A stretch of 22,746 nt of DNA. Origin: a virus. The stretch covers positions 1-22,746 of IMG/VR virus record IMGVR_UViG_3300035701_000316. The stretch is one strand, 5' to 3'. Shown here in pieces: positions 7,791-22,746 of the stretch. The translations under genes and the position numbers were made by a program. Numbering within the stretch: position 1 is the stretch's first letter; each line of letters begins with the position of its first letter. The notes under the pieces were generated by a model that was given only the letters and a program-made list of their open reading frames with translations, was not told where the DNA came from and searched no databases.

Positions 7791-9500
7791 TTAGCTTGGG
7801 ATGGCATAGACAAGGATCTTGCCAGTGAACGTGCCTGCCGAGGTCAGCAGTTGGAACGAGGTGATGTTTGCCGCTCCATCATAATAGCCAGCTCCCGTTG
7901 TCCCTTGAAGATTTGCGCCAGTTAAATACGATGAACGATGTGTCAGGTTTCCGATTGTGCTATCGGCAATTTTGGGAGTGAAATCAAATGAACCAGCGAT
8001 AGACGATCCGACAGCTACAAGGTCAGCGCCACTCAAACGAATTTCCGTTGCGGCGTTGGCTCCGTTCCCGGCAACGGGGCCTGCTCCTGTGCTTTCTGTA
8101 ACAGTTACCCACTTATAGAGTGCGCCTGCATCCGCATTGAATCGAAGGTCGAGACGGCCTGCGGCTGTGTTTTGATTCGCCTGAAATTCTACTGAGTATT
8201 TCTGTCCAGCCACCAGAGCAATGTTGCCAGTGTTGGCGACAGCCGTGACATTCGTTACCGAAACCAATTTGCGAACTGCTGTGTCCTGCAAGATGACATA
8301 GTTCGTGCCGTCATAGACGACTTGCACGATGTCGTTGGCAGAGAACAGGCCAGCAGGCGGATCCTGCAAAACACCAAAGGCGGAGATCTTGAGAGGCTTG
8401 GCTCCGCCAGCGTTCACGTTGAGAGTGCAGGCCCCAGTGTTGGCAACGTCCGCTTTAAAGACAAAGATATTCCCTGTAATCGTGAAGTTCACCCGCTTGA
8501 TCCCGTTGCCAGTGTCGTAGGTCGTGCCTGCGCTGGCCCCTGAGACACCATAGCTGACCATGCTATCCTGAGCATAGATGCTCGAGATGATCACAAACTG
8601 ATCGAGGGCGAGGTTGTATTGGACGGTGATGTATTCGCCCAAGGAATAATCTCGCAGAGAGTTGGCGATGTAGAGCGTAGCTCCCGTAGCTGGATCAGCT
8701 CCCTTTTTCCTAAGCAGTTTAGCAGGCAATCCATTGACGGCAAGTGACGATAAGGCTGACGAGGAAAATGCGGCCTTGAAGGTGTAGGTTGCTCCGTCTA
8801 GGTAAGCAGTAGGAGCCACATATCCTGCGGCGGCGATGTTGACGCCAGAGAGAACATGGTTTGGAGAAACGCCTGAGTCGGTGGCATAGACGATCTCTTT
8901 TGTGCCAAGCGCCGTTCTCGAGGCAAGGCTAGTTGTCAAGCCGAGGATGGTATTCCAAAAAGCAGATACTAGAGTCGAGGGAGCCGCACTTGCTACGGAG
9001 ATAATATCTCCGAGGGAGTTCCAGCCGAAGTATTTGTTTGCCCTCTGACTCACGGTTGGAAGTGTAGAATTTAATGAAGTCGGAGCTTCGGTCAAAGGGA
9101 GCTTGACGGATCTGTTAAGGGTGTCGTTCATCTGTTGGAGCAACATCGTCAAGCGGTCAAAGGCATCCTCAATTGTTTTAGGGTAGAACAATCCTTGGTT
9201 ATTCAGGACAGCAGGCTGTGTGAACGCCATACCTCGCACGATTGATAATGTGGAAGTTGCTGGCAAGATGGCAGGGATCGATACGCCGATGATCTGTGTG
9301 ATCGAGCCGCCAGTGTCAGAGCCAACTCCGGTGACGGTGTAATCGACATTAAGCACTAGGGCTGTGAACAGTCCAGTGGCAGAGCTGTAAGAGACGACAG
9401 CCAGATCAGACTCAGCGAAAACCTTGAAGCCATACGACCAAGTGATCGTGACTCCATTGCCTACATAATCGTTTCGTGCGATTGGGTTCGAAATTGACAC
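7791..9500 (-). CDS. Tail fibre / receptor-binding protein
   Basis: 569 aa from a GTG at 9500 with GGAGGA upstream. The N-terminal 150 residues match the virion-attachment domain of T7-type tail fibres ('sn..ardqy.gnG.t.tw.y.F.v....dl.V', then 'R.......PavFnnq..l..kt.E.A.DrltmllQq'). Two related segments follow: residues about 238-303 (TFKAAFSSSALSSLAVNG ... FVIIS) and about 340-402 (VFKADVANTGACTLNVNAGG ... YVILQ), each the strand-rich 'l.vng...k.l...g..l..g.....gd.v.v.yd...y.il' type common in fibres. The last 160 residues are glycine/threonine/serine-rich beta structure, ending FTGKILVYAIPS, the probable receptor-binding tip. I see no C-type lectin/DGR variable repeat. Confidence 0.85.
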   Translation of the reverse strand: MSISNPIARNDYVGNGVTITWSYGFKVFAESDLAVVSYSSATGLFTALVLNVDYTVTGVGSDTGGSITQIIGVSIPAILPATSTLSIVRGMAFTQPAVLNNQGLFYPKTIEDAFDRLTMLLQQMNDTLNRSVKLPLTEAPTSLNSTLPTVSQRANKYFGWNSLGDIISVASAAPSTLVSAFWNTILGLTTSLASRTALGTKEIVYATDSGVSPNHVLSGVNIAAAGYVAPTAYLDGATYTFKAAFSSSALSSLAVNGLPAKLLRKKGADPATGATLYIANSLRDYSLGEYITVQYNLALDQFVIISSIYAQDSMVSYGVSGASAGTTYDTGNGIKRVNFTITGNIFVFKADVANTGACTLNVNAGGAKPLKISAFGVLQDPPAGLFSANDIVQVVYDGTNYVILQDTAVRKLVSVTNVTAVANTGNIALVAGQKYSVEFQANQNTAAGRLDLRFNADAGALYKWVTVTESTGAGPVAGNGANAATEIRLSGADLVAVGSSIAGSFDFTPKIADSTIGNLTHRSSYLTGANLQGTTGAGYYDGAANITSFQLLTSAGTFTGKILVYAIPS

Positions 9501-9549: not shown

Positions 9550-12500
9550 CTATTTTCCAGTCATTAAACCCCTTGCAAAGTCGATAGGGCCTGCGGGTCG
9601 GGCCTTTCCAGAGGCCACATCCATTGAATAGCCAATGGGTTTTGCGGCAAATGCCAACGGAACCCTAAGCACATAGCCCATTAAAGTCAGGACATCTTTC
9701 ATGGACTCTTTTTTGCTTCCTGTTCCGATGTAAGCCTTGTATAGATCTCCCGGGGTATGGACTACCCTCTCCAACATGGCGATAGCAGGAGATGTCGAAA
9801 TGTTGTCATCGAATGTTTTGTTATTGAACCTAGCCACTCCAGCCCTAAGCACAGGCCCCAAGAAAGGAACGATGGAGGTCGCCGCATCGAATTGTGATGC
9901 GAAGAACCAAGACATAACCTCGTCCATGTAGCCATCGTTGTCATCGTCATCGAGGCCCTTGCCGAGAGCCAACTGTCTGAGCATTCCGCCCATCACCGCA
10001 GGGAGAGTGAACGCCATCATTCCAGCAAACACCGCCCTCCCTATCCCTTTTTTAAAGCCTTTGTCTGTGATCGATGTCGCAAACTCAGTTCCTAAAGTAT
10101 TGGCCTGCTGGTTGTAGTAAGAGTAGAACATTTGGAAAAGCTGGATGTATGACTTCTGAACCTCGAGGGAGGAAATGTCAATCGGCCTGAAACCTCCCTG
10201 CGTCTGACGAACTGTGGCGTCAGCTTGTCGGATAGCTTCTTCTTCAGAGATTCCTGATTGGGTGGCGATGGCCTGATCGTATGCCCCTGTCCAAGTTATG
10301 ACGTTCACCATATTCTGAAAACTACGTTGGAAAAAATAACCATGCCGATCAGAGAAAGTCCTAACCTTGTCCAAGCCACTCTTTTCGAAAACTATTTCGT
10401 TGATATCGTTTTGAATATCAATTATTTGCTTTTCGAGTTCAAGGGACATAAAGCTAGACTTGTTCGTTATCTCCTCAACGAATGCTTTGGGGCCAGATCT
10501 ATATTTCCAAAGGGCATCTCTCAGATGAGAAGGTTTTACCCTAATTAGAGACGCAGACAATCCAGTGATCTGCATAGCTCCGTTGACAATATTTCCAACC
10601 ATGATCTGTTCTCCGGCAGACTTCCTGATCTGTCTCCAGAAGTTATCTAACATGGCTCCATCTGGCCCTTTGATCGGGATGGTAGTGATTTGAAGAACGG
10701 ATCGTTGCAACCAAGGAACCAGCATGTTGCTGGCGGCAGTGGGGTCGAGGGCATCTAAAGTGCTTCTGAAATCTTTATCCCAAAGGATCTTGGCTACATC
10801 GTTGGTGTGAGGAGCTATATGGATGAAGCGGAGAACTTTGTCCATGTGCGAGGAAGCCTGTCGGATATCTAGGATCAGAGGTCGGGCATATCCTTCGCTA
10901 CGATTTTTTGTGAACCCTTTAGCAGGAGTCGGAAACATGAAGCTGTTTTCTTGACCTTCCAACTGCTCTTTTTCAGTTCTGATCCTAGCGTCAGGATTAA
11001 CAAAAGGATCTGCCATAGCAGGATAGTAACCACCTTTGTATCTTCCGAAAGGGGTATCGAATTCCTCGGATGTAACCTCATCGTAGAATTTTCCATACAT
11101 CTTTTTGTGAGCCTTCTGCGACTCAGGCTTCAATTCTTCCATCAAATCCCAAACACCTTGAGCAAAGTCATAATCAACTTTAGTTAGCATCCCCTCTTTT
11201 TGCATACGCTTCTCGAAAGCATCCCACCTAGAAGTATCTAAAACTCCATTCTCGTCCAGAGTTCCCCACTTATATCCACGCAACAGCTTAGAGAAATTAC
11301 TAGGATTACCACGGTGGAGAATAGCTCCTAAGAGATATCCCTTGTCAGCAAATTTGGCATTCGGGCCAAGCTCGGGGGCAAGAATGACATCGTAGGACAT
11401 CCCCGGAGCAACCGCCTTAGCCAGTTCGTTGAACTTCTCCAAGTATTTAACTTTTTCTACGCCGAATTTTACCGTGGCGTCATTTATGACATTCCACATA
11501 TAAGTGTGGAAAGGCCCTCTTGGGTTTTTTTGATCCATTCTTTCAGCCCAACTCTCGACCCTTCTTCCCCTAGACCTTAATCCTAGTAGGCCCATCTTAT
11601 TTTTTTCGCCAGATGTTGCGAATCCAGCGAACTCGTTCTCCTTCAAGCCTCCGGGGATGGAGTCCATAGCCACTGTCAAATCATCGATGGCTTCCTGCCG
11701 CTCTATCATCTTGCCATTTACTTCGATGAATTTCTCGTGCTTCGAAAGCTCCCAAATGGCTGTAACCGCCTCAGTCATTTCCATGAATTTGTTAAAAGGA
11801 ACATCGTTGTAGTTTGCCGAATCACTAATAGCCGAATCTACCATAGCCAGAATGGTCTGATATTTTTCTACATCATACTCTTTAATCGGAGCCAAATAGC
11901 TTTCGGAAGTTTTTCCTTTTTTAGCCAAACCGAATTCAGCTAAGACGGCCCGGGCCGCATTAACGTAATTCATTTCACGTTTTGGCGCAAGTTTCGAGTC
12001 CGGCCCCAAAACCTTTTCGAATAAATCAAAAGCTCGGGAGATGTATTCCTTGGCTTCGATGGCCCTGCGAAACAGCTCAAAGTTCATCCGCTCACGTTCT
12101 TTTGCGACAAAGGCTCCATCGAGATCTCCTTTGGTGAACAACACACCAGACTCTTTGGCCTGCCTTCTCTCCGAAATTTTGTAAATGTTTGGTTTTATGT
12201 CGCCAACATTCTGTTCCCCGATAGCCCCCAAGCTGGCCTGAGTTATGCTTGCCTGCGGCGCAGGGCGGCGAGCGATCCTACGGATGCCTGCCTTGACCAC
12301 AGGTAGGCTGTTCTTGAACAGGATGTCAGATTCCAGTTTTAACTTATACGCCTGTCTGTCGTTCAGGTGGGCCTTGATCGCCTCGTTGGAAGCATCTTCC
12401 CCCTCGGCAATATCAGGGAACTGGATAAGCATACGGCGATAGGTCATGTCGTCAATAAGCTGTTCTTTCTCGGTGGCGTTAGAGATAGCCGCCATAAGCT

Positions 12501-15500
12501 CACTGCCGGATTCAAAGCCAAGCACTCCAGCGATGACATCAGGGTGCATTCCGTTGGCCTCGGAGGTGACTCCTTTGGGAAGTCCAGCCCTTGAAGCGGA
12601 AGGAATGTCGGATGTTTTAAGTTTTAGCGGAGTATCTGGAGTCTGGTTGTGTTGGAGTTTTTCTATGGTCTGATAAATAGGCATAGCTTCAACCTCGGCT
12701 CTGGCCCCGGCCTCTACCCCTACCCTCTTTGCGGCATATAATTTCTTCTGCTCACGGCTATACTTCTTCAAGAATTTAGTCGTGATCTGTTCGTCAGCCG
12801 CTTCGCTGGCATCGGTTACAGCTTTTTTATATTTCTGATATTCGACATCGGACATTTGGGCCGATGCCGCATCTTTAAATATAGGCCCGAGCGACTGAGC
12901 TTCCCTCGCTCTAGTGGCGGCATCCTTTCCGCTAGTCATCCTGTCGAAGATATCTCTTATCTTCGGATCCATTTGAGTCTTAGGGATTCCTGCATAAACG
13001 CTCGTGAACCAAGCCTTGAACTTGGCAAAAACTGAACGGAGATTTTCAGTTGGGGCCACACCTTCCATCAGGTAGGTTTCGTAGGCGTTAGCAAATCTCT
13101 CCAGCATCTCATCGGTTGGAGTTCCGCCTTCCTTAACTCCAAACCACTCCCTAATATCATAATGAAGCTGTTTTATCTCGGGAGCGGCGTTCGGCGCAGT
13201 GGCTAGGCGCTCTATGACCTCGTAGAAGTAATGCCCCGATTCGTGGAGAATCGTTGTGAGGTTTTTTGATTTGAAAAGTTCGACAAGGGCTAAGTGGCCC
13301 TCGATAGTGATCTGCCCGTTTCTATCTACGTCTCCGGAACGATAGGATTGTCTAAGGACTTTTTGTCCTCCTGTCCCTTCTCGCTCGATGTCTCCGAGGG
13401 CTGAGTCGATGAGTCCGGAGGCTTTGCCCCTAAGATTATTAGCGATTTCAGCATCGGATGATTTTCCTCCAATGGAACCTTCCCCTTGTAAGCCATAGTC
13501 GTTCTCTCCCTTAGAAACAAAAGACGAAAAAATATCCGAAGAACTAATCAGAAATTGTTCTCCGAGAGCGGAGTCTATCATAGGCCCAAGCTCATCGGCG
13601 GTTGTTATTTTAGGATCAACCAAAAGCATCATCTTGTTGTCGATGGTGGTGTGACCCTCGACCAGATTACTTTCTCCTTTTTTCAGTTTAGAAAGTTCGC
13701 CAAAAATCTTGGTGATCGTTTCGCTGTTCGAGCCATCGGGAAGATGGACGGTGATCATTTCGGTGGGAGAAGATCCGCCGAATTTGGTTGGGCTAGTAAC
13801 AAGAACACTGTCTTGCGACAAAGAGAATCCAGCTATACTAGCCACTTGAACAAGTTTGTGGGGCTCTGTCCCTTCCGGAAGCTCAATAGAGAAAGATGGA
13901 TTCGTTACGCCTAGATATCCTCCGAGATGCTCAACTACGTTACCCTCTACTCCGGCAGAGGCGAGTATCTTAGGAATCATTTCTTTAGCAACGCTTAAAC
14001 TTACGTCCGTCTTTTGCTTGATGGACAAAGCGTTCCAGCGTTCTGTTAGTGCTAGGTCGTTTGGATCTGGAGCAACCTCAAGAGTTACTTTTCCGGAAAG
14101 AACTCCTTGTTGTCCTCCGTCAACGCCTCGATTGTCCGTTGATCCAACAGATTGTCCAAGTCGTCTAGCCTCCTTTTCTCGAAGGAGCTTTGCTCTTTTG
14201 GCGACATCTTCTCTTTGAATTCCTCTGATTTTCCCTTCGGCATCTCTGACCTCCTTTAATTTATATACCTCGTCCGCTAACCTTGTTGCCACCTGTTCTA
14301 CACTTTCTCCATCTTTAGTGTAACGCACAGCGTTAAGTTCTTCTACACTTATCTTTCTAGGAACCTTGCCGTTATTGTCCCAAATTGTGAGTCTGACATG
14401 AGGGCGTTCCTTCGCCATCCTGAGAATGGTTTCTTGGGCCTTGATGTGATCCTCGAGCAAAACATCGACTGGGACGTATCTTCCGCCAGTTTTGGGGTTC
14501 AGAAAGCGCAAGGCGGCCCTGCGAGCGGCCTCCTTAGCATCGAGATACACATATTTAACAACGGATTCCCTGTATTTCGCTTGGTCAATAAGAGCCATTG
14601 ACTTGTCAAAATCAGCAAAAGTTCCGTCTATAACTGTGTTGGCTCCTTCTATTCCGTCTTTTGGAATAGATCCTTTTCCGGAGCCGCCGCCGCCAGCCAA
14701 GAAAACAACCGGGGCGTTCCCATCACGGATCAAAAGCCTTTCAGCATACATCTTGGTTATAATCGCCCTAGCTACTTTTTGGGTGGCTAGGGTATAGAGA
14801 GTTTTCCCATTTGCGCTTGCGGCGTATTCAGGCATAAGCTGTCGAGCTAAATCGACATCTAAGACCTTTCCTCCATCTGTTCCGTCAAGTGCTGAATAAA
14901 GCTCTACTATATTAGGTTGAGCGGCTATCTCGCCAAACCTCGTTTCAGCCTCCGTTTCATGCGGAAGGAGATTTCCCATCGGCACATAATCAATGGACTT
15001 TACAGGCCGAGGTTTACCTGTTAATCTTTCTAATAGGGAGGCAACACTTATGTCAGTAGAAAATGATTTTGATTTCGCTTCATTTCCAGCCGGAACAGTT
15101 TTGTTGGATATCGAGGGCAAGCCAGTCGCCAAATTTCCTGATGGCTCGGCTTGGGCATTCCTGCCCGGCAAAGTTGAATTCCCCTCGGGCGAGACTGGCA
15201 AGGGTTCCCCTGCCACTCCGGACGAATTCATGGAAATGATGTTCGAAGCCGAGGATCGCAGGAGAGATGAGGCTCTGGCCTCGGAATAAATTTCCCTTTG
15301 AAGATCTTCAAGTTCTTGCTTGATCGGATTTACTTCGTGAAGCGACCTAGCCCGAGTATATAATTCATGCCCAACGCTTTTAGATAAAACAAATTCCGGA
15401 ACAGAAAGCTGGATTTCTCCAGTCACTCCATTTTCCATTTTAACATTTATTAAAATATCTGAGTAACCGTCAAGGCTAGGCTTTAAGAACCTGTCTTTGA

Positions 15501-17826
15501 CTCTCAAGACGTTTTCTTTTCCGTATATTTTTTCGACAACTTTTACTACATTGCGAGCATCCTCGATGCTATCAGTGACAATAGTTCCCCTAACAAGATC
15601 TTTCATCGCTCTAGGATCTTTGTCATTCTCAGAAATGTGCTTTTCGATTGTTCTGATCTCGGCTTTAAGTCCGGTCTTTCTGACGTATGTATTGGTAGCG
15701 TCAGCTATGGCTTTGATTTTTGAATCGAACTCCGGTTTGCTCGCCTGCGCTTTCTCGATAAAAGGCTTGAGAGATTTTTTGGCTTTAGCTATTTCGGAAG
15801 CGCCAAAACGATCCACCAATCCTTCCATAGTGGCTACGGCTGGCTTGCGATATTTTTTTATCGCCGCAAGTGCTTTCTCAATAACCTGAGATGAAAGAAC
15901 ATGCTCGACAATGCTTGGAACAAGTTGTTTTTTTATCGGTTGCTCAAAGGGGAGATCTTCACGCTTTGGCCCAAGCTCGCTCGCCTGAAACAGAGCCTTC
16001 GGGCTAGGGGCCTGACCCTCTCCGGCGTTCTGAATGATTAGAGGTAGATTTTGGAGAATAGTTTGAGGTTCCACCTTAGCGAAGCCAGCGATGTTCTCAA
16101 CGACATTCCTAATGGATCTAGCGATAGGCTTTGCGAATTCAGGTATCTCGCCTGTGCCTTTGATCATATTTAACAATTTTTGTTCTTGAGCCACCATCGG
16201 GTTTTCCGAGTTGGCGGCTTCAACAGCCTTAGCCTCGGCAACGGCGGCGGCGACCTGTTGCTTCAAGTCTGCCTGAACCTTCTCGTCAGCCTCTACTTCC
16301 TCAACGGTTTTTTCCTGTTCTTGAAATCTGAAAGAATCTTTCAGCTTTTCAAATTCAGGAGTTCCGGAAAAGTTATCCAAAATAACAGCAGTTGGGATGA
16401 TAACCTCGCCTGTCTCTCTGCCAAGTTCATATTCCTTGGCTATGCCCAATTTCTGAACCACCTCTGCTGTGTTGGGAACCAAAGACTCGAAAACATCGGT
16501 TTTAAAAACCATGTTTTCGATAGTGGTTCCTTTTAGATTTGTTTGGGCAAATGTTTTTGTAGAGCCCGGAAGTTTCTCCTGAGCCTTCAATTCATCAAAC
16601 TTGCTCCCGATATCGGTAAGTGTTTTTTTTGAATTTTCAGCTACCTGTTTAATTCTTTCCATACGGCTTGCGGCTATTCCAACAGATCCAGCCGCATTTA
16701 TAGTCCCGCCTGATACGGCTCCTGCGGCGGCGGCGTTGAAGGCTCTCTCCCAAGCGCCATTCATAGCATTAGGGTCAACGCCAGTAAGGTAATCCGCCAT
16801 ATCCTGAGAAAACTGAGTGAGCCCTTCTCCAGTCGCCTCAACTCCAGTATTGTAAGCTACTGATTTGGCGAAAGATTTTACGACTTCTCCAGCCGCATCC
16901 CTCCCTACCTGTTTAACTAAAGCCTCTCCCCAATGCTTTAAAGGCATAACCAATTCTAAAGATTCGAATCCGGCTTCAAATGCTCCGTTAAGATTTGCCG
17001 CAAGCCTACGAGCTTCCGGAGAAGCTCCCGAGTCGGCGGATTCATCGTAATGCTGACCAGAGGTAGTTAATCCAATCCCGGCAAGAGCTGGAGTGCCAAG
17101 TCCAGAAAAGGCCGCACCTAAAAGTGCAATACTTAATGGCGCAGACTCAACGGCATCCAATACAAAATTTCCTCCCGCTCCAATTAGATCTCCTTTTTTT
17201 ATATCTGCCCAACCGGATCCCCAAGCCGAAGGGTTGATGACCTCTTGTTCAAATTTAAGTTGTTCCCTGAGCGAATCTCTGTATCTGGTAAGCTCTGCGC
17301 TTGGATGAAATTCCGGAGCTTCAATTCTTCCCGGGATGCCCATTTTGTCGAACACCAAATTCGATAAATCAACGGCGCTTCCTCCGAGGGTAGCTAGTCC
17401 TTCCGGAAGATATGAAGGCATTAGCTCAAGCCCTGTAATCACCCCGTTGTGAAGCCTGCTCTGGAGATTCTCCATTTTGCTGTGTTTTTTAGGAACATCG
17501 TCAAAGTTGGTAAGATTTATTACTTCTTTCCTGTGGATAGATGCGTTATTAACGTCCTCCAAATACTGAGCAACTTTAGGGTTTTCAGAAAGTAATTTCT
17601 TGTAATCAATAGAATCCTGAGCAACTTTCTGTTCAACCTCCGGAATATTTCTGGAAACTATTTCAGGATCGACTCCGGAGGCTTGGGAAAGCTCCATCGA
17701 TTTAGCGTGAGTCTCTGGAGTTGTTTGAGATGCCCCAAACATAGATGCTCTTAACGCAGACTCGTTTTGAGTTTGCATCTGATCAAATGCTTTTGTGTAG
17801 CTTTCAGGGAATTCTTCATTTTGCAT
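9550..17826 (-). CDS. Giant polyvalent internal virion (ejection) protein
   Basis: About 2758 aa from the ATG at 17826, which gives an 11-base overlap with the upstream gene; an in-frame ATG (17853) and GTG (17862) lie further upstream. The N-terminus has the 'sq.sGvdpeiv.rNi.eve.k' motif of podovirus internal proteins, then glycine/alanine-rich hydrophobic stretches (about 220-250 and 355-382). Next, by motif: a RelA/SpoT-like domain (about 700-830; KDLVRGTIV, GYSDILINV, GEIQLSVPEF, HELY); a Ser/Gly/Pro-rich linker; a zeta-toxin-like P-loop kinase (about 945-1200; GGGGSGKGS near 1043); a strand-rich segment with FSLSQDSVLV; and a zincin-like site HESGH (about 1528-1532). The last 600 residues are helical with two hydrophobic segments (about 2593-2620 and 2648-2663) around an acidic DDDDNDG loop. 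The position matches T7 gp16: it probably enters the cell with the DNA. Domain calls are by motif; roles are inferred. Confidence 0.9.
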   Translation of the reverse strand: MQNEEFPESYTKAFDQMQTQNESALRASMFGASQTTPETHAKSMELSQASGVDPEIVSRNIPEVEQKVAQDSIDYKKLLSENPKVAQYLEDVNNASIHRKEVINLTNFDDVPKKHSKMENLQSRLHNGVITGLELMPSYLPEGLATLGGSAVDLSNLVFDKMGIPGRIEAPEFHPSAELTRYRDSLREQLKFEQEVINPSAWGSGWADIKKGDLIGAGGNFVLDAVESAPLSIALLGAAFSGLGTPALAGIGLTTSGQHYDESADSGASPEARRLAANLNGAFEAGFESLELVMPLKHWGEALVKQVGRDAAGEVVKSFAKSVAYNTGVEATGEGLTQFSQDMADYLTGVDPNAMNGAWERAFNAAAAGAVSGGTINAAGSVGIAASRMERIKQVAENSKKTLTDIGSKFDELKAQEKLPGSTKTFAQTNLKGTTIENMVFKTDVFESLVPNTAEVVQKLGIAKEYELGRETGEVIIPTAVILDNFSGTPEFEKLKDSFRFQEQEKTVEEVEADEKVQADLKQQVAAAVAEAKAVEAANSENPMVAQEQKLLNMIKGTGEIPEFAKPIARSIRNVVENIAGFAKVEPQTILQNLPLIIQNAGEGQAPSPKALFQASELGPKREDLPFEQPIKKQLVPSIVEHVLSSQVIEKALAAIKKYRKPAVATMEGLVDRFGASEIAKAKKSLKPFIEKAQASKPEFDSKIKAIADATNTYVRKTGLKAEIRTIEKHISENDKDPRAMKDLVRGTIVTDSIEDARNVVKVVEKIYGKENVLRVKDRFLKPSLDGYSDILINVKMENGVTGEIQLSVPEFVLSKSVGHELYTRARSLHEVNPIKQELEDLQREIYSEARASSLLRSSASNIISMNSSGVAGEPLPVSPEGNSTLPGRNAQAEPSGNLATGLPSISNKTVPAGNEAKSKSFSTDISVASLLERLTGKPRPVKSIDYVPMGNLLPHETEAETRFGEIAAQPNIVELYSALDGTDGGKVLDVDLARQLMPEYAASANGKTLYTLATQKVARAIITKMYAERLLIRDGNAPVVFLAGGGGSGKGSIPKDGIEGANTVIDGTFADFDKSMALIDQAKYRESVVKYVYLDAKEAARRAALRFLNPKTGGRYVPVDVLLEDHIKAQETILRMAKERPHVRLTIWDNNGKVPRKISVEELNAVRYTKDGESVEQVATRLADEVYKLKEVRDAEGKIRGIQREDVAKRAKLLREKEARRLGQSVGSTDNRGVDGGQQGVLSGKVTLEVAPDPNDLALTERWNALSIKQKTDVSLSVAKEMIPKILASAGVEGNVVEHLGGYLGVTNPSFSIELPEGTEPHKLVQVASIAGFSLSQDSVLVTSPTKFGGSSPTEMITVHLPDGSNSETITKIFGELSKLKKGESNLVEGHTTIDNKMMLLVDPKITTADELGPMIDSALGEQFLISSSDIFSSFVSKGENDYGLQGEGSIGGKSSDAEIANNLRGKASGLIDSALGDIEREGTGGQKVLRQSYRSGDVDRNGQITIEGHLALVELFKSKNLTTILHESGHYFYEVIERLATAPNAAPEIKQLHYDIREWFGVKEGGTPTDEMLERFANAYETYLMEGVAPTENLRSVFAKFKAWFTSVYAGIPKTQMDPKIRDIFDRMTSGKDAATRAREAQSLGPIFKDAASAQMSDVEYQKYKKAVTDASEAADEQITTKFLKKYSREQKKLYAAKRVGVEAGARAEVEAMPIYQTIEKLQHNQTPDTPLKLKTSDIPSASRAGLPKGVTSEANGMHPDVIAGVLGFESGSELMAAISNATEKEQLIDDMTYRRMLIQFPDIAEGEDASNEAIKAHLNDRQAYKLKLESDILFKNSLPVVKAGIRRIARRPAPQASITQASLGAIGEQNVGDIKPNIYKISERRQAKESGVLFTKGDLDGAFVAKERERMNFELFRRAIEAKEYISRAFDLFEKVLGPDSKLAPKREMNYVNAARAVLAEFGLAKKGKTSESYLAPIKEYDVEKYQTILAMVDSAISDSANYNDVPFNKFMEMTEAVTAIWELSKHEKFIEVNGKMIERQEAIDDLTVAMDSIPGGLKENEFAGFATSGEKNKMGLLGLRSRGRRVESWAERMDQKNPRGPFHTYMWNVINDATVKFGVEKVKYLEKFNELAKAVAPGMSYDVILAPELGPNAKFADKGYLLGAILHRGNPSNFSKLLRGYKWGTLDENGVLDTSRWDAFEKRMQKEGMLTKVDYDFAQGVWDLMEELKPESQKAHKKMYGKFYDEVTSEEFDTPFGRYKGGYYPAMADPFVNPDARIRTEKEQLEGQENSFMFPTPAKGFTKNRSEGYARPLILDIRQASSHMDKVLRFIHIAPHTNDVAKILWDKDFRSTLDALDPTAASNMLVPWLQRSVLQITTIPIKGPDGAMLDNFWRQIRKSAGEQIMVGNIVNGAMQITGLSASLIRVKPSHLRDALWKYRSGPKAFVEEITNKSSFMSLELEKQIIDIQNDINEIVFEKSGLDKVRTFSDRHGYFFQRSFQNMVNVITWTGAYDQAIATQSGISEEEAIRQADATVRQTQGGFRPIDISSLEVQKSYIQLFQMFYSYYNQQANTLGTEFATSITDKGFKKGIGRAVFAGMMAFTLPAVMGGMLRQLALGKGLDDDDNDGYMDEVMSWFFASQFDAATSIVPFLGPVLRAGVARFNNKTFDDNISTSPAIAMLERVVHTPGDLYKAYIGTGSKKESMKDVLTLMGYVLRVPLAFAAKPIGYSMDVASGKARPAGPIDFARGLMTGK
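14999..15027 (+). promoter_or_regulatory. Possible promoter for the antisense ORF inside the giant gene
   Basis: -35 TTTACA (14999-15004, 5/6), 17-base spacer, -10 TAATCT (15022-15027, 3/6 but with the key T, A and final T) preceded by TG one base upstream, an extended -10 feature. Start would be near 15034, directly before GGGAGG. Weak alone; noted because it precedes a good ribosome binding site and ORF. Confidence 0.25.
15050..15289 (+). CDS. Candidate nested antisense gene (79 aa) within the giant gene
   Basis: The ORF opens at an ATG with a near-ideal GGGAGG eight bases upstream (15036-15041) and runs to TAA at 15289. It encodes an acidic protein with ordinary composition: MSVENDFDFASFPAGTVLLD, then 'iegkpVAKFPDGSAWAFLPGKVEF', a glycine/serine turn, and an amphipathic C-terminal helix (EFMEMMFEAEDRRRDEALAS). 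On the opposite strand this stretch encodes only the low-complexity Ser/Gly/Pro linker between the RelA/SpoT-like and zeta-like domains, so overprinting costs little. The codon third positions of both genes face each other. No family recognised. It could be a shadow ORF; the ribosome binding site and natural composition argue for a real gene. Confidence 0.4.
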   Translation: MSVENDFDFASFPAGTVLLDIEGKPVAKFPDGSAWAFLPGKVEFPSGETGKGSPATPDEFMEMMFEAEDRRRDEALASE

Positions 17827-19468
17827 TTTGTAATCCGTAGAAGATCTCAACATTTGCGTCACTAGGGATCATGTTTTTTGACTCTAGGAACTTTCTGACT
17901 CTCGAAACATCCGCTCTAGGAATCTCAGACAGAGGAATAACATCCTCGAATGTTTTTTTGCCACTGGCTTTTTGAATCGCCATAGTTTCAGCAATCTTTT
18001 GGATATCGGTGGACGAGGCTATTCGGCCTCCGTTTGAGTCCTCGAAATATTTAATGTGCCTTTGAACATCTCTTTCAAAATCTCCGAGGGCTGGAGTATA
18101 TCCTCCCTCCCGTATTTGTTTAGACGAAAGTTCGCTAGGAACAATTCCTGATTTTTGAGCAGTTTTCATAATAATTTCATCGAAGCTCTGGTCTGCGGCT
18201 GACTTTCTGGATGATGCAGGATTATTAACTGCATCGATAGCATTTTTTCTGCGAGCAGTGGCGGCGTTTCTTTGGGACAAATTTAATTTAGTCCAGTAAC
18301 CGTCAAACTCCTCATTGCCCATAGTAGCCAAAGTTTCTGTTGGAATCTGTTTCAGTTCAAACCAAGCCGCATCGTTGGGTTTTTTAGGAACATTGAGTCG
18401 GGCCACGATCAATTCCTTTTGTTCGGGAGTGGCATATACCCATTTCGACAAGTCGATGCTTTTGTCCGGAGATATGTTCTGCGGAGTCATTTTCACAGTA
18501 TTAACCATATCATCGTAGCCTCCGGCAGATATGGCTTTTACATCTCGAGCCCTTTCGTCATATTTGTGACTAAGTTCCGCCGCAACTCGCTCACGAACCA
18601 CCAAGTCCTTTATTTCTTTAACTGCGTCTCGGGTCTGATATTCTTCTGGATATTTTTCAAATAATTTATCAGCTTCGGCAGAGACTTGTCTGCGTATGTC
18701 GCCTTCTTTGACAGCGCCTTCAAGACTTTTCCTATCGACAGGAAGAATGAACGGAAGTTTTTCATCGTAATATTGTTTGGCTGAACTGAATTGATCTTTA
18801 TTTAAACGGTCAGTGACCACGCCAGAATAAATCTTGCTGACGATTGACGATGACACATCTATTTTTTCGTTCTCGGTTAATCCTTTGCGTTCACCGAATT
18901 CGTCCACCTTTTGATAAATAGAGGAAACGAATTCCTGCACACGACTCGGCCTTCCGTCCATGATTGCGGCGTTGGAAAGATTTTTTACCCAACTGTCAAA
19001 TACAGAGTCAGCGTGTTTCTCTCCCTCAACGGCGGCGTGATGCATCACACGCCTATACATATCGCCACTGGCATCCTTCATTTTCTGGTTAGCCATTTGC
19101 CTTTGAACACTTGTCGTTAAACCGTTGGTCAATTCGCTGGCGGTTTTTTCGAATCCAGAAACAATTTGTTCCGGCTGACTCATGGCGTTAAGCCCACGTT
19201 GGCTCAGGGCTCCCCCGGGAGCGTCCATTATGTCTGTTGATAATTTTGTTATTTGGGATTCGTAATCCATGACAGCGATCTGATCAGCCTTCTGCTTCTG
19301 ATGCTCGATCTCCTTCATCATAGAATCGTTGAGGGCCAGTTGTGATTGTGTGACCTGTCCGGCGCTTTGGCCTCCGCCGAGAGCCGAAAGCGGAACGTCT
19401 CCGCTAACTCTTACGTTAGGGAGGCCCTGTTCTTGAACTCTGTTTTCCGCTAAAGGAACGATAGCCAT
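17816..19468 (-). CDS. Internal virion protein (gp15 position)
   Basis: 550 aa, starting one base after the stop of the gp14-like gene (TAAAATG). It is almost wholly helical and polar, with no membrane segment or signal peptide. The order of segments is typical of podovirus internal/ejection proteins: a short flexible N-terminus (SGDVPLSALGGGQSAGQVTQ), long helices with MMHH-type polar repeats, FILPVDRKSLEGAVKEGDIR near residues 228-247, and 'YDDMVNTVKMTPQNISPDKS' near 318-337. It lies between a gp14-like gene and the giant gp16-position gene, as T7 gp15 does. No enzymatic motif is seen. It probably forms part of the ejected channel or core; the assignment rests on length, composition and order. 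Confidence 0.7.
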   Translation of the reverse strand: MAIVPLAENRVQEQGLPNVRVSGDVPLSALGGGQSAGQVTQSQLALNDSMMKEIEHQKQKADQIAVMDYESQITKLSTDIMDAPGGALSQRGLNAMSQPEQIVSGFEKTASELTNGLTTSVQRQMANQKMKDASGDMYRRVMHHAAVEGEKHADSVFDSWVKNLSNAAIMDGRPSRVQEFVSSIYQKVDEFGERKGLTENEKIDVSSSIVSKIYSGVVTDRLNKDQFSSAKQYYDEKLPFILPVDRKSLEGAVKEGDIRRQVSAEADKLFEKYPEEYQTRDAVKEIKDLVVRERVAAELSHKYDERARDVKAISAGGYDDMVNTVKMTPQNISPDKSIDLSKWVYATPEQKELIVARLNVPKKPNDAAWFELKQIPTETLATMGNEEFDGYWTKLNLSQRNAATARRKNAIDAVNNPASSRKSAADQSFDEIIMKTAQKSGIVPSELSSKQIREGGYTPALGDFERDVQRHIKYFEDSNGGRIASSTDIQKIAETMAIQKASGKKTFEDVIPLSEIPRADVSRVRKFLESKNMIPSDANVEIFYGLQNAK

Positions 19469-19469
19469 T

Positions 19470-20075
19470 TTATTTTCCTAAGCTAAGGCCGTAGTTTTTT
19501 GGATATATTTTTTCAATAGATGTGTTGAAGTCAGAACTTTCTGGCGGAGATTTGTATATATCTTTTTTGTATTCAGAATAAAACTTCCCCGAGTCCAACA
19601 GTCTGCCAGTGGCCCTGAGTCCACCAGACAATAATGTGTTTCTGGAATCTTGATCGCCAGAAATTTTTGAAATCTCTCCAGAAAATCTATCGTTAGCGGC
19701 TTTCGATTTCAATCCCAAAGCCTCACGATAGGCATTTATTCTGATGGTTGCGGCGTCCTCTGCTCCAATCCTTCCGGCCTCGACCTGAGCATCTAGCCCT
19801 GATCCGCTATCCACAAAAATACCTTGGGCGGCAAGGGCGGCTCTCTGAGCCCCGATGAGCTTCTGTGTAGCCGCATCACTGCGGCTGGCAGTTTTTTCTC
19901 CACGAGTGATAGCGTCCTCGGCTTGAAGTTCAGCCATCCTTGCATTCTGTTCTCCAGCTCTCTTGGCGATATCGCCTCGAGTTCTAAGAGCCTGAGCTTG
20001 ATCGAATGCGCTGGACATATCAATGAAGGCGCTTCCTGCGCTAACTCCAGACATAAGTGCATTTGCGTTTGACAT
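19470..20075 (-). CDS. Internal virion protein, T7 gp14-like
   Basis: 201 aa from the ATG at 20075, which overlaps the nozzle stop by one base (TGATG) and has GAGG upstream; a GTG one codon earlier is less likely. The N-terminus is small-residue rich (GVSAGSAFIDMSSAF), followed by a long alanine/arginine helix. The conserved core of gp14-family proteins is visible as 'GaQRAaLAAqGI.vdSGSglda', followed by 'E.grigaeDaatIR.NAyReAlG'. In T7 the gp14 protein enters the outer membrane during DNA ejection. Gene order (nozzle, gp14, gp15, gp16) matches the T7 virion cluster. Confidence 0.82.
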   Translation of the reverse strand: MSNANALMSGVSAGSAFIDMSSAFDQAQALRTRGDIAKRAGEQNARMAELQAEDAITRGEKTASRSDAATQKLIGAQRAALAAQGIFVDSGSGLDAQVEAGRIGAEDAATIRINAYREALGLKSKAANDRFSGEISKISGDQDSRNTLLSGGLRATGRLLDSGKFYSEYKKDIYKSPPESSDFNTSIEKIYPKNYGLSLGK

Positions 20076-22746
20076 CACTGCCTCGTAGGAATGAAGCCGC
20101 CCGGGGCTACTGCTAGAACTGACATGGGCAACGGGTCGGTTTGGCGTATCAGAATTCTACCATTGGAATTCCATTCTGTCCTCAAATTGACGTAGGCCGT
20201 TCCTGTCGTTAAATCAGGGTTACTGCCGTAAGTCTCTTGATTTCTAGTCTTTAACTCAAAAAGACCCTCGGTAGGATCGCTTCCTGTGGGGATTTCAGGC
20301 CCGTAGAATCCGCCTCTCGTGTCCTCAAGAGCAATGGTGACTCTCTCCACGTTCTTAGCCTTATCGATCATCGTCTCTCCTTGAGTGATGTCGATATTCA
20401 GCGTCTCGATGTCTGTTATATAAGGAAGCCCGACTTGGATTACAGCCGCAGGAAAGTCTAGGTTAATCGTTCCGTTGACGACCTTGACAACTGGATATTT
20501 CGGGTTGTTAGGGCTGGCTACCACGGCTCCGTCAGCTAAAACGCTGACGTTCTCTCCTTCGAGATGCCAGAATCCAACGAACTTTTTAACCAGTCTTTTC
20601 CAGCTCGAAAACCTCAACGGGGCAGTAACCAAACTTTGCATCGAGACAGGCACATCTCTGTCGGGAACGGCTACAAATTCACCTGACAAAGTAGATAAAA
20701 AAGTGATGGTCATGGTCAATTCAAAACCAGACGAATCGGTTATTTGTATAACATCGCCTATGTTGAATCTTCTCAAAGGAGGTAAAGGAAACTGGAGCCC
20801 AATGAAACGCATCTGCAAAGGAACTCCAGCCAACCATGTCGGTGAATTTATTGCGATGATATTTCCCGGAGGATCTGCGTTCACAACTAGGGCAGAATTT
20901 ATCACATCGACCTGAGCGGCAGGGTCACTGTTTCTGTTATCAATCGTCAGCAGGCAATCGGAAAAAACTGCATCATCGATGGTGTCATCTGAAACGATTC
21001 GAGTGTTCAGTCTTTCGGAAAAAAAGTGAGTGGATCCGTTTATGACCCTCTCGACCACGACATAGATCGCATCTTCTTCACCTTCGGGGATCGAACAAAT
21101 ATGTCTGACAAACCCATCGGTATCATGGCGATGCCAAGCCCAAATCTGCTGTTCACGAATATAGGTCAGGGCAATAACATTGCCGTTGTCTAGGACGCAC
21201 CATACGATGCTCTGCGGGATCTGTTGCCATGCCCACTCGACAATAGTTCTTCCGACAAAAAGATGCGAAGCATAAATTGTCAGATCGTTTCCACGATAAC
21301 TGTCGCTTTGGAATTCAAAAGCAAGACTCCTGACGATAGATCCACGATTTTGAATGTAGAGCGCATCGCCACCTACCACAAGAGGAGGAACTATACTGGA
21401 ACCATTCTGGCTATATTGCTTCGGATTTACAGCAGTTGGGGTCAGGGTTCCGTTGGAGTTCCCTTCAATTGAATTCTCTGATCCAGTAGTGAACACGATT
21501 AGCTTTCCTATGTTTATCATGTTCTGGATTTTGTTCACCTGATTTGCTGTCATATCGAACTGCAAGGCATCGTCATCATTCAACTGCCTGCTGGACACAA
21601 AGTTGTTTTGCAAACCTATTCTTGACCCAAAAATTCTTTCGGGATTGGCAATTGTATTTCCAAACAACAGACGTTGCTGAAAGAATGTTACACAGGTCGG
21701 ATAGTTATTTGTTCCTGTAAAATTGTTACTCACGGCTGGAGGTTGCTGATTTGTAACAGCTTGACCAACATCCAAGAAGGTAGTTCTTGTAACTCCAAGC
21801 AATAGATAATATCCAGAACCTCGAGGAGTTTCTTTATACACATTATATTCTGTCGCTCCCAAGGCCGGAGTGAACCCCAATTGGTTCCAATTTGTAGAAG
21901 TTACTGGATCAACGCCAAGTGTGGTGGCAACGGCAGTGGGCAGTGATTCCTCCCCTGTGATGTCGTTGATCGCCGTCATCACAAACCGATACGGGATTAG
22001 GCCGGGAGTGAAACTACTCGCCACAACTCCAGTTGGGGGAGCCTGCGTGGGAGCAAAAGTCATGGTCGTGAACGTCCAGTTGGTATCGTTGATTCTTTTT
22101 ATTTCGGTGGGTTGCTGGAAGTATGGGTTCACTCCATCCTGTGCGCCTACAACAATCATCGAATTTGCGTTCTGGACGAACTTGAGATTTTTCTCATTGA
22201 GAGATGTTAAAAGTATTCCTGTGGCGAGTGTTTCATAAATGCAGGCCGATTTACCGCCAAAAAGATAGGTGGAGAAATTAGTTGAATCAAAAGTTGTTCC
22301 GTCCATGTTTTGTAACGTGAAGGTCGATACGCCTGTAACCACAACTCTTAAATCTCTAAAGTTGAGTTCTTCCATTCCGACACAACCGCTTATGAAAACT
22401 TCCTGACCAGTTACTATTCCGTGAGGGGCGGAAGTTGTGACTATGGCTGGATTTGATTTGGAGACAGTCAGAATGTCCAATATGGAAGTTGAAACATAGG
22501 CCCCGTTTTTTATGACACGCATACATGCGCCTGCCGCAAAGAAAGGGGCTTTCCTAGTTCTGAACTCTAGGACGTAGGAATTGCTTTGGTCAACGATGAA
22601 CGGAATAGTGCGTATCGCAGGCCCGAATGTCGGGGATCCATCTACAAAAATCTCCCCTACCAACTTAGTTCCCGGCCTGTTTTGAACTCCGCCGTGGCGC
22701 ATGACTAAAGCATTGCGACAAGTTTTGAGCCCAAACTCATACTTGA
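20075..22746 (-). CDS. Tail nozzle / tail tubular protein B (T7 gp12-like), partial
   Basis: The frame is open to the right edge: upstream of the ATG at 22702 it continues in frame as KYEFGLKTCRNALV, so the start lies outside the window and about 890 codons are present. The junction GLKTCRNALVMRHGGVQNRP and 'GT' is a signature of the N-terminus of podovirus nozzle proteins ('y..GL.tcrN..v..hGGv.nRpGT'). It is followed by IPFIVDQSNSYVLEF and a domain with SAPHGIVTGQEVFISGCVGM, 'lNfrdl.V', which is typical of this family. Then come a fibronectin-like segment (TGVVASSFTPGLIPYRFVMT) and propeller-like strands with QRLLFGN and ERIFGSR. It forms the distal end of the short tail. Family assignment is strong. 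Confidence 0.88.
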   Translation of the reverse strand, partial: KYEFGLKTCRNALVMRHGGVQNRPGTKLVGEIFVDGSPTFGPAIRTIPFIVDQSNSYVLEFRTRKAPFFAAGACMRVIKNGAYVSTSILDILTVSKSNPAIVTTSAPHGIVTGQEVFISGCVGMEELNFRDLRVVVTGVSTFTLQNMDGTTFDSTNFSTYLFGGKSACIYETLATGILLTSLNEKNLKFVQNANSMIVVGAQDGVNPYFQQPTEIKRINDTNWTFTTMTFAPTQAPPTGVVASSFTPGLIPYRFVMTAINDITGEESLPTAVATTLGVDPVTSTNWNQLGFTPALGATEYNVYKETPRGSGYYLLLGVTRTTFLDVGQAVTNQQPPAVSNNFTGTNNYPTCVTFFQQRLLFGNTIANPERIFGSRIGLQNNFVSSRQLNDDDALQFDMTANQVNKIQNMINIGKLIVFTTGSENSIEGNSNGTLTPTAVNPKQYSQNGSSIVPPLVVGGDALYIQNRGSIVRSLAFEFQSDSYRGNDLTIYASHLFVGRTIVEWAWQQIPQSIVWCVLDNGNVIALTYIREQQIWAWHRHDTDGFVRHICSIPEGEEDAIYVVVERVINGSTHFFSERLNTRIVSDDTIDDAVFSDCLLTIDNRNSDPAAQVDVINSALVVNADPPGNIIAINSPTWLAGVPLQMRFIGLQFPLPPLRRFNIGDVIQITDSSGFELTMTITFLSTLSGEFVAVPDRDVPVSMQSLVTAPLRFSSWKRLVKKFVGFWHLEGENVSVLADGAVVASPNNPKYPVVKVVNGTINLDFPAAVIQVGLPYITDIETLNIDITQGETMIDKAKNVERVTIALEDTRGGFYGPEIPTGSDPTEGLFELKTRNQETYGSNPDLTTGTAYVNLRTEWNSNGRILIRQTDPLPMSVLAVAPGGFIPTRQ

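What the first reader, a model, noticed from the sequence alone, without database searches (positions are those of the whole stretch)
9550..17826. One virion protein of about 2,760 residues combining ppGpp-synthetase-like, zeta-kinase-like and zincin-like domains
Seen: RelA/SpoT-type motifs, a GGGGSGKGS Walker A with zeta-like surroundings, and an HESGH site in one uninterrupted frame. Established: multi-domain 'polyvalent proteins' of phages and conjugative elements carry such effector and peptidase domains and are delivered with the DNA. Inference: this protein sits at the T7 gp16 position, so it may both form the ejection channel and bring a package of host-modifying enzymes into the cell in the first moments of infection. 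The zincin could cut the polypeptide to release the domains.
Basis: partly seen in the sequence, partly recalled or inferred. Interest (0 to 1): 0.72.

Follow-up and report, generated by a model that had tools for sequence, protein, structure and literature searches.

The report
Giant phage protein carrying bacterial toxins
A short-tailed phage has a roughly 2,760-residue protein that carries an alarmone-making enzyme domain and a cell-wall-precursor kinase domain in a slot where its relatives carry other host-attacking enzymes; it is a new combination within a known class of 'polyvalent' phage proteins.

Summary
From the N-terminus it carries LPD22, an RSH-type alarmone-synthetase (SYNTH) domain nearest the T6SS toxin Tas1/Apk1, a divergent Zeta-type P-loop kinase, a conserved unknown domain ('dom4'), an HESGH...E zincin-like motif and a roughly 1,200-aa helical C-terminal carrier. 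The gene lies between gp12/gp14/endolysin-like genes and a tail-fibre gene, the place of T7 gene 16. At least 465 IMG/VR stretches and about 40 phage records share the carrier. At the cargo position they hold ADP-ribosyltransferase, GNAT, PBECR nuclease, ParB, LPD23 or nothing; none of 95 relatives examined has SYNTH or Zeta. This fits the class 'polyvalent proteins' (PMC5512222), which already lists RelA/SpoT, zeta and MPTase domains separately; the SYNTH+Zeta pairing was not seen elsewhere here. Not supported: homology to T7 gp16 (profile probability <2%). Untested: presence in virions, enzyme activities, zincin self-cleavage. The zincin fold is inconclusive: motif invariant in 13 phages, but the model gave no zincin match.

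The parts
9550..17826 (-). whole gene, 2,758 aa from ATG 17826 (alternative GTG 17862 gives 2,770 aa; residue numbers here use the 2,770-aa form)
   Evidence: weak GGA upstream of ATG 17826
15973..17826 (-). N-terminal head, residues 13-630, detectable in 45 of 95 relatives; hydrophobic stretch 233-265
17494..17748 (-). LPD22 (large polyvalent protein associated domain 22), residues 39-123
   Evidence: Pfam 44.1 bits, cut-off 28.6; present in most isolate relatives
15313..15795 (-). RSH-type alarmone synthetase (SYNTH) domain, residues about 690-850; kept active-site residues D755, R758, K794, Y800, E816, Q818
15025..15270 (-). low-complexity polar linker between SYNTH and Zeta, residues 865-946 (candidate cleavage region, inference)
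14365..14910 (-). Zeta-type P-loop kinase, residues 985-1166: DLARQLMPEY (14824-14853) upstream of Walker A (14668-14694), VIDGT (14620-14634)
   Evidence: Pfam 42.3 bits; aligns with Zeta_1 toxin 6eph through the part upstream of Walker A (E=0.02, weak)
13384..14094 (-). 'dom4', residues 1257-1493, unknown; also found in L003, L006, L024 and next to the SYNTH domain in L221
13078..13245 (-). zincin-like motif: H1540-E-S-G-H1544 and E1588 (third-ligand candidate), E1595
9553..13290 (-). conserved carrier, residues about 1525-2770, all-helical in the model
   Evidence: PHROG 9880 E=2e-278; 80 IMG/VR loci kept of 465; model pLDDT 82
17816..19468 (-). neighbour: PHROG 1044 'endolysin', place of the structural lysozyme of relatives
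19470..20078 (-). neighbour: PHROG 418 internal virion protein (gp14-like)
20075..22744 (-). neighbour: PHROG 376 tail protein (gp12-like)
7791..9500 (-). neighbour: tail fibre N-terminal domain (PHROG 1640)

Best explanation
The gene encodes a phage polyvalent protein: a virion-borne carrier with a swappable effector slot. The constant part (LPD22 head, zincin-like segment, long helical C-terminal region) is probably built into the virion with the internal/ejection proteins and delivered with the DNA. The slot in this phage holds two growth-arresting enzymes: a Tas1-like pyrophosphokinase, expected to make (p)ppGpp or (p)ppApp or otherwise consume ATP, and a Zeta-like kinase, expected to phosphorylate UDP-activated amino sugars and so stall peptidoglycan synthesis. 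In the first minutes of infection they would put the cell into a stringent, non-growing state and free nucleotides and envelope capacity for the phage, or blunt host defence. The zincin, part of the constant carrier, most likely processes the polypeptide so that cargo domains separate at their linkers. Shown: domain order, homologies, conserved catalytic residues, gene place, cargo swapping. Inferred: packaging, delivery, activity, timing, cleavage.
For: Domains and residues. Gene order: and relatives. Carrier shared by at least 465 IMG/VR stretches and about 40 phage records. Cargo differs at the same position: ART-PolyVal, GNAT, PBECR1/3/5, ddrB-ParB, LPD23, DUFs or almost nothing, slot length 78-1,567 aa. 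The SYNTH domain groups with those of other giant phage proteins (100/96 support); one of them, L221, is dom4-SYNTH-ART-LPD38. The class and the proposed roles of RelA/SpoT, zeta and MPTase in it are published (PMC5512222). Related exported alarmone synthetases are toxic in the cytoplasm (PMC12691689).
Against: No virion proteomics or biochemistry for this protein or, as far as found, a close relative. Zeta is divergent: no tblastn hit in phages or plasmids, its Pfam match covers only profile positions 95-190, and the PDB hit is weak. The zincin fold was not recovered: the modelled region has helices but no sheet, and no PDB match; L1587 replaces a His found in 64 of 65 aligned proteins. The cargo region modelled without relatives gave no usable fold (pLDDT 38).
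Confidence: 0.7

Rival explanations
1. A T7 gp16-type ejection protein whose main job is to form the DNA channel, with the enzyme-like domains as degenerate or structural relics.
For: Same gene place as T7 gene 16; long helical C-terminal region with a hydrophobic stretch 2606-2628; carrier conserved while cargo varies.
Against: No profile similarity to T7 gp16 or gp15; no solved structure matched; catalytic residues of SYNTH are kept in a diverse family, unlike a relic.
Confidence: 0.12
2. The cargo is not injected but made late in the infected cell, as a superinfection-exclusion or inter-phage/plasmid competition toxin.
For: Late-type gene block; SYNTH domains also sit beside portal genes in PHB04-type phages, near a small HD hydrolase that may serve as immunity.
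Against: No immunity-like gene in this window, though it is only a 22.7-kb fragment; the carrier shares its place with internal virion proteins in the relatives examined.
Confidence: 0.13
3. The Zeta-like segment is only a generic P-loop NTPase and the HESGH only a helix motif, so the protein is a SYNTH-bearing polyvalent protein without kinase toxin or peptidase.
For: Zeta similarity by single sequence is partial; the zincin has no Pfam or PDB match.
Against: Zeta_toxin is 20 bits over its curated cut-off; HExxH plus two Glu invariant in 13 phages collected without using the motif; MPTase is the commonest domain of polyvalent proteins (PMC5512222).
Confidence: 0.2

Closest known systems
Polyvalent proteins of phages (Iyer et al. 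2017, PMC5512222), e.g. P1 DdrB, N4-like virion RNAP
   Same: Large multi-domain protein in a late/virion gene block; LPD22; MPTase-like motif; effector domains that swap between relatives; RelA/SpoT and zeta both listed there
   Different: RelA/SpoT and zeta in one protein was not met in the passages read or in the 95 relatives examined here; that paper places zeta in conjugative elements and MuF fusions
Bordetella phage BPP-1 Bbp10 (NP_958679) and homologues
   Same: Carrier with the zincin-like motif, LPD22 head, same gene place
   Different: Cargo is a PBECR1 nuclease-type domain; 24% identity, in the carrier
Tas1/Apk1, T6SS (p)ppApp synthetase of Pseudomonas aeruginosa (6ox6), and exported alarmone synthetases (PMC12691689)
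   Same: SYNTH domain with matching active-site residues; nearest solved structure
   Different: Delivered by secretion systems, not a phage; product of the window's domain unknown
Zeta_1 toxin (6eph; Neisseria, from own knowledge)
   Same: P-loop kinase with a conserved D..(K/R)..P segment upstream of Walker A
   Different: Similarity weak (E=0.02); no antitoxin gene seen here
T7 gp16
   Same: Gene place before the tail-fibre gene
   Different: No detectable sequence similarity; no SLT domain found in this protein

Membership tests
Phage polyvalent protein | several unrelated effector domains and LPD domains in one polypeptide | tested here: met
   LPD22, SYNTH, Zeta, zincin-like motif in one frame
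Phage polyvalent protein | virion/late gene neighbourhood | tested here: met
   relatives
Phage polyvalent protein | architectural mosaicism between orthologues | tested here: met
Phage polyvalent protein | transferred with the DNA during invasion | not testable with these tools
   needs virion proteomics and an injection assay
RSH-superfamily alarmone synthetase (SYNTH) | profile similarity to solved RSH synthetases | tested here: met
   Tas1 3e-19, YwaC 3e-13 and 18 others
RSH-superfamily alarmone synthetase (SYNTH) | catalytic Asp and Glu, G-Y motif, basic residues kept | tested here: met
   K733, D755, E816, Y835 (alignment K44, D66, E127, Y146) invariant in 54 rows and not part of the search pattern; G-Y was part of the pattern
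RSH-superfamily alarmone synthetase (SYNTH) | Pfam PF04607 gathering cut-off | tested here: not met
   17.1 vs 27 bits; 22.8 bits; homologue L221 reaches 26.6
RSH-superfamily alarmone synthetase (SYNTH) | pyrophosphokinase activity, product identity | not testable with these tools
   assay needed
Zeta toxin kinase | Pfam PF06414 cut-off | tested here: met
   42.3 vs 22.3 bits, profile positions 95-190 only
Zeta toxin kinase | Walker A and acidic substrate/catalytic segment | tested here: inconclusive
   Walker A present; the D..R segment lies upstream of it, as in the weak alignment to 6eph
Zincin-like MPTase of polyvalent proteins | HExxH plus Glu in the following helix | tested here: met
Zincin-like MPTase of polyvalent proteins | three-stranded sheet and zincin fold | tested here: inconclusive
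   no strands modelled, first 35 residues low confidence, no PDB match
T7 gp16 ejection protein | sequence/profile homology | tested here: not met
   hhalign probability 0.5-1.7%
T7 gp16 ejection protein | gene position | tested here: met

The most novel reading that the evidence does not exclude
A podovirus ejection-protein carrier with a modular slot delivers, in one polypeptide, an alarmone (possibly (p)ppApp) synthetase and a cell-wall-precursor kinase, kept harmless until the carrier's own zincin releases them inside the new host: an injected, self-activating growth-arrest package.
Probability: 0.25. Interest if true: 0.72.

Novelty: new member of a known kind. Interest (0 to 1): 0.45.

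Why it matters
If true, phages bring alarmone synthesis and cell-wall arrest into the host before any phage gene is expressed, using the same enzyme families that bacteria use in T6SS and toxin-antitoxin warfare. The carrier family (at least 465 IMG/VR stretches) has a length-variable cargo slot whose two edges can be mapped, so it is a practical place to look for unknown phage effectors: whatever lies between the LPD22 head and the zincin is a candidate. The carrier has cultured members in Pseudomonas, Caulobacter, Vibrio and other phages in which packaging and cleavage can be tested directly.

Tried and rejected
Structure of the cargo region 643-1241 without an alignment: pLDDT 38, not used. 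Whole-protein, Zeta and SYNTH single-sequence scans of viral contigs found nothing. Zeta motif scan of viral contigs: none. A first genome scan for the SYNTH motif used a pattern with too short a gap (detected, corrected). Alignments A4 and A5 were too diverse for a genome scan. T7 gp16/gp15 homology: rejected. Zeta in 30 relatives' records: none. NCBIfam: nothing. A GC3 step at residue about 1514 (0.41 to 0.51, 0 of 500 shuffles) looked like a cargo boundary, but the neighbouring gp14/gp15-like genes share the low value and the fibre gene the high one, so it marks a mosaic junction of the genome, not the cargo specifically.

Full report
1. Observation. The record is a 22,746-base IMG/VR virus record, probably a fragment. 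The claimed frame exists on the minus strand, 17862 (GTG) or 17826 (ATG) to 9550, without a stop. ATG 17826 is favoured: the upstream gene ends at 17816 and this start has a GGA upstream. Residue numbers below use the 2,770-aa form (P0001).

2. Domains. Pfam gives LPD22 (39-123, 44 bits, cut-off 28.6) and Zeta_toxin (1073-1166, 42 bits, cut-off 22.3) above cut-off and RelA_SpoT (738-819, 17 bits, cut-off 27) below it. The RelA call was therefore tested further. phmmer against solved structures finds Tas1 (6ox6) at E=6e-7. A motif from the domain (K-x-R-F-x-K-P-x3-G-Y-x-D), checked on known copies first, found 87 genome stretches, largely Vibrio/Photobacterium, and 36 viral stretches. A profile of 54 of these domains matches Tas1 (3e-19), YwaC (3e-13), RelP, Rel and RelA structures. 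Residues K733, D755, E816 and Y835 (alignment K44, D66, E127, Y146) are invariant although they were not in the search pattern. In the tree, the window's domain falls with those of other giant phage proteins (L221, L203, L202, L220, L198; support 100/96) and apart from the Vibrio type and the portal-adjacent type; nearest is L221, 42% identity, whose protein reads dom4-SYNTH-ART-LPD38. The Zeta part has Walker A at 1057-1065 and a DLARQLMPEY segment upstream of it at 1004-1013, an order also seen in the (weak) alignment to the Zeta_1 toxin 6eph. It has no tblastn relative in 50,697 phage or 72,556 plasmid records, so it is a divergent copy. The HESGH at 1540-1544 with E1588 and E1595 is invariant in 13 phage proteins collected by plain tblastn; 64 of 65 in a second set, which is biased because its search pattern included the motif.

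3. Surroundings. Upstream are a gp12-like tail protein, a gp14-like internal virion protein and a PHROG 1044 'endolysin'; downstream is a tail-fibre N-terminal domain. Relatives keep this order. The left part of the window holds VRR-NUC, helicase, YqaJ exonuclease, RecT, SLT and DUF5675 genes, and no recognisable alarmone hydrolase or Zeta antitoxin.

4. Relatives and cargo swapping. tblastn found 44 phage records; in most the match is confined to residues about 1500-2770. Profile search gave at least 465 IMG/VR stretches, 80 kept. Head, dom4 and carrier were mapped in 95 relatives; SYNTH and Zeta were found in none, dom4 in three. In 59 cases with a complete 5' end the stretch from residue 520 to the zincin is 78 to 1,567 aa long and holds ART-PolyVal in 28, and GNAT, PBECR3/5, RES, PARP, AdoMet lyase and DUFs in a few. 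Among isolates and named genomes: ART (L003, L004, L006, L015), GNAT and/or PBECR5 (L007, L013, L014), PBECR1 (BPP-1, L008), LPD23 (L011), ddrB-ParB (L018, L019), nothing recognised (L005, L012, L016). This is the strongest evidence that residues about 630-1240 are cargo.

5. Carrier. A model of 1490-2689 from 65 sequences has mean pLDDT 82 and is helical. The PDB gives no match at E<=0.001; the viral library gives 71, headed by large phage proteins, several annotated as polyvalent. T7 gp16 and gp15 show no profile similarity. So position, not demonstrable descent, links it to T7 gp16. The zincin helices are modelled but no sheet, and the first 35 residues are low confidence, so the fold is inconclusive.

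6. Mechanism. Best reading: virion carrier with effector cargo delivered with the DNA; SYNTH and Zeta arrest growth; the constant zincin processes the chain at the linkers (865-946, about 1228-1256, about 1460-1500). Published precedents: P1 DdrB is processed to 76 kDa before packaging while N4 vRNAP is packaged whole; both roles of MPTase are discussed in PMC5512222. Apk1 makes (p)ppApp, and exported synthetases are toxic when kept in the cytoplasm (PMC12691689). Shown here: sequence, homology, conservation, gene place, swapping. Inferred: everything that happens in the virion or the cell.

7. Novelty. The class is known, and RelA/SpoT, zeta and MPTase are each already listed in it. What appears new is their joint presence in this podovirus carrier and the mapped slot. 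Absence elsewhere is limited to the relatives and databases examined. Verdict: new member of a known kind, interest 0.45.

Noticed in passing
L009 7365-8846 and 9052-9630 (Bordetella phage PHB04); L102 2874-4253; L103 3-1208 and 1423-2019: A SYNTH-domain gene lies directly after or near the portal gene, with a small HD hydrolase gene close by; by look a synthetase-plus-hydrolase (immunity) pair in phages.
   Followed up: partly
L202 1463-13039 (-), L203 3-8981 (-), L216 1-7761 (+), L210 5997-12656 (+), L221 1-5205 (+): Other giant phage proteins (1,700-3,900 aa) carry the same SYNTH family with InPase, ParB, MuF, 2H-like, ART or LPD38 domains but not the window's carrier.
   Followed up: partly
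L105 3851-4639, L107-L193: Many Vibrio/Photobacterium genomes encode a short SYNTH protein, apparently with a signal peptide, like the exported alarmone synthetases of PMC12691689.
   Followed up: no
window 13102-13104 (residue 1587): The window has Leu where 64 of 65 aligned relatives have His, directly before the invariant Glu of the zincin-like motif.
   Followed up: no
L056 4605-8465: One relative lacks the HExxH motif in the aligned place; may be a natural inactive copy or a fragment.
   Followed up: no
window 13384-14094 (residues 1257-1493): dom4, a conserved domain of unknown function, lies after Zeta here but directly before SYNTH in L221.
   Followed up: partly
window, residue about 1514 of the gene (near 13323): Third-position GC steps from 0.41 to 0.51 inside the gene; flanking genes continue each level, suggesting a genome mosaic junction inside the coding sequence.
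   Followed up: yes
GenBank names of relatives (L003, L006, L008, L015, L017-L019): Relatives are often annotated 'crystallin beta/gamma motif-containing protein', 'lysin' or 'lysis protein', names that none of the evidence here supports.
   Followed up: no
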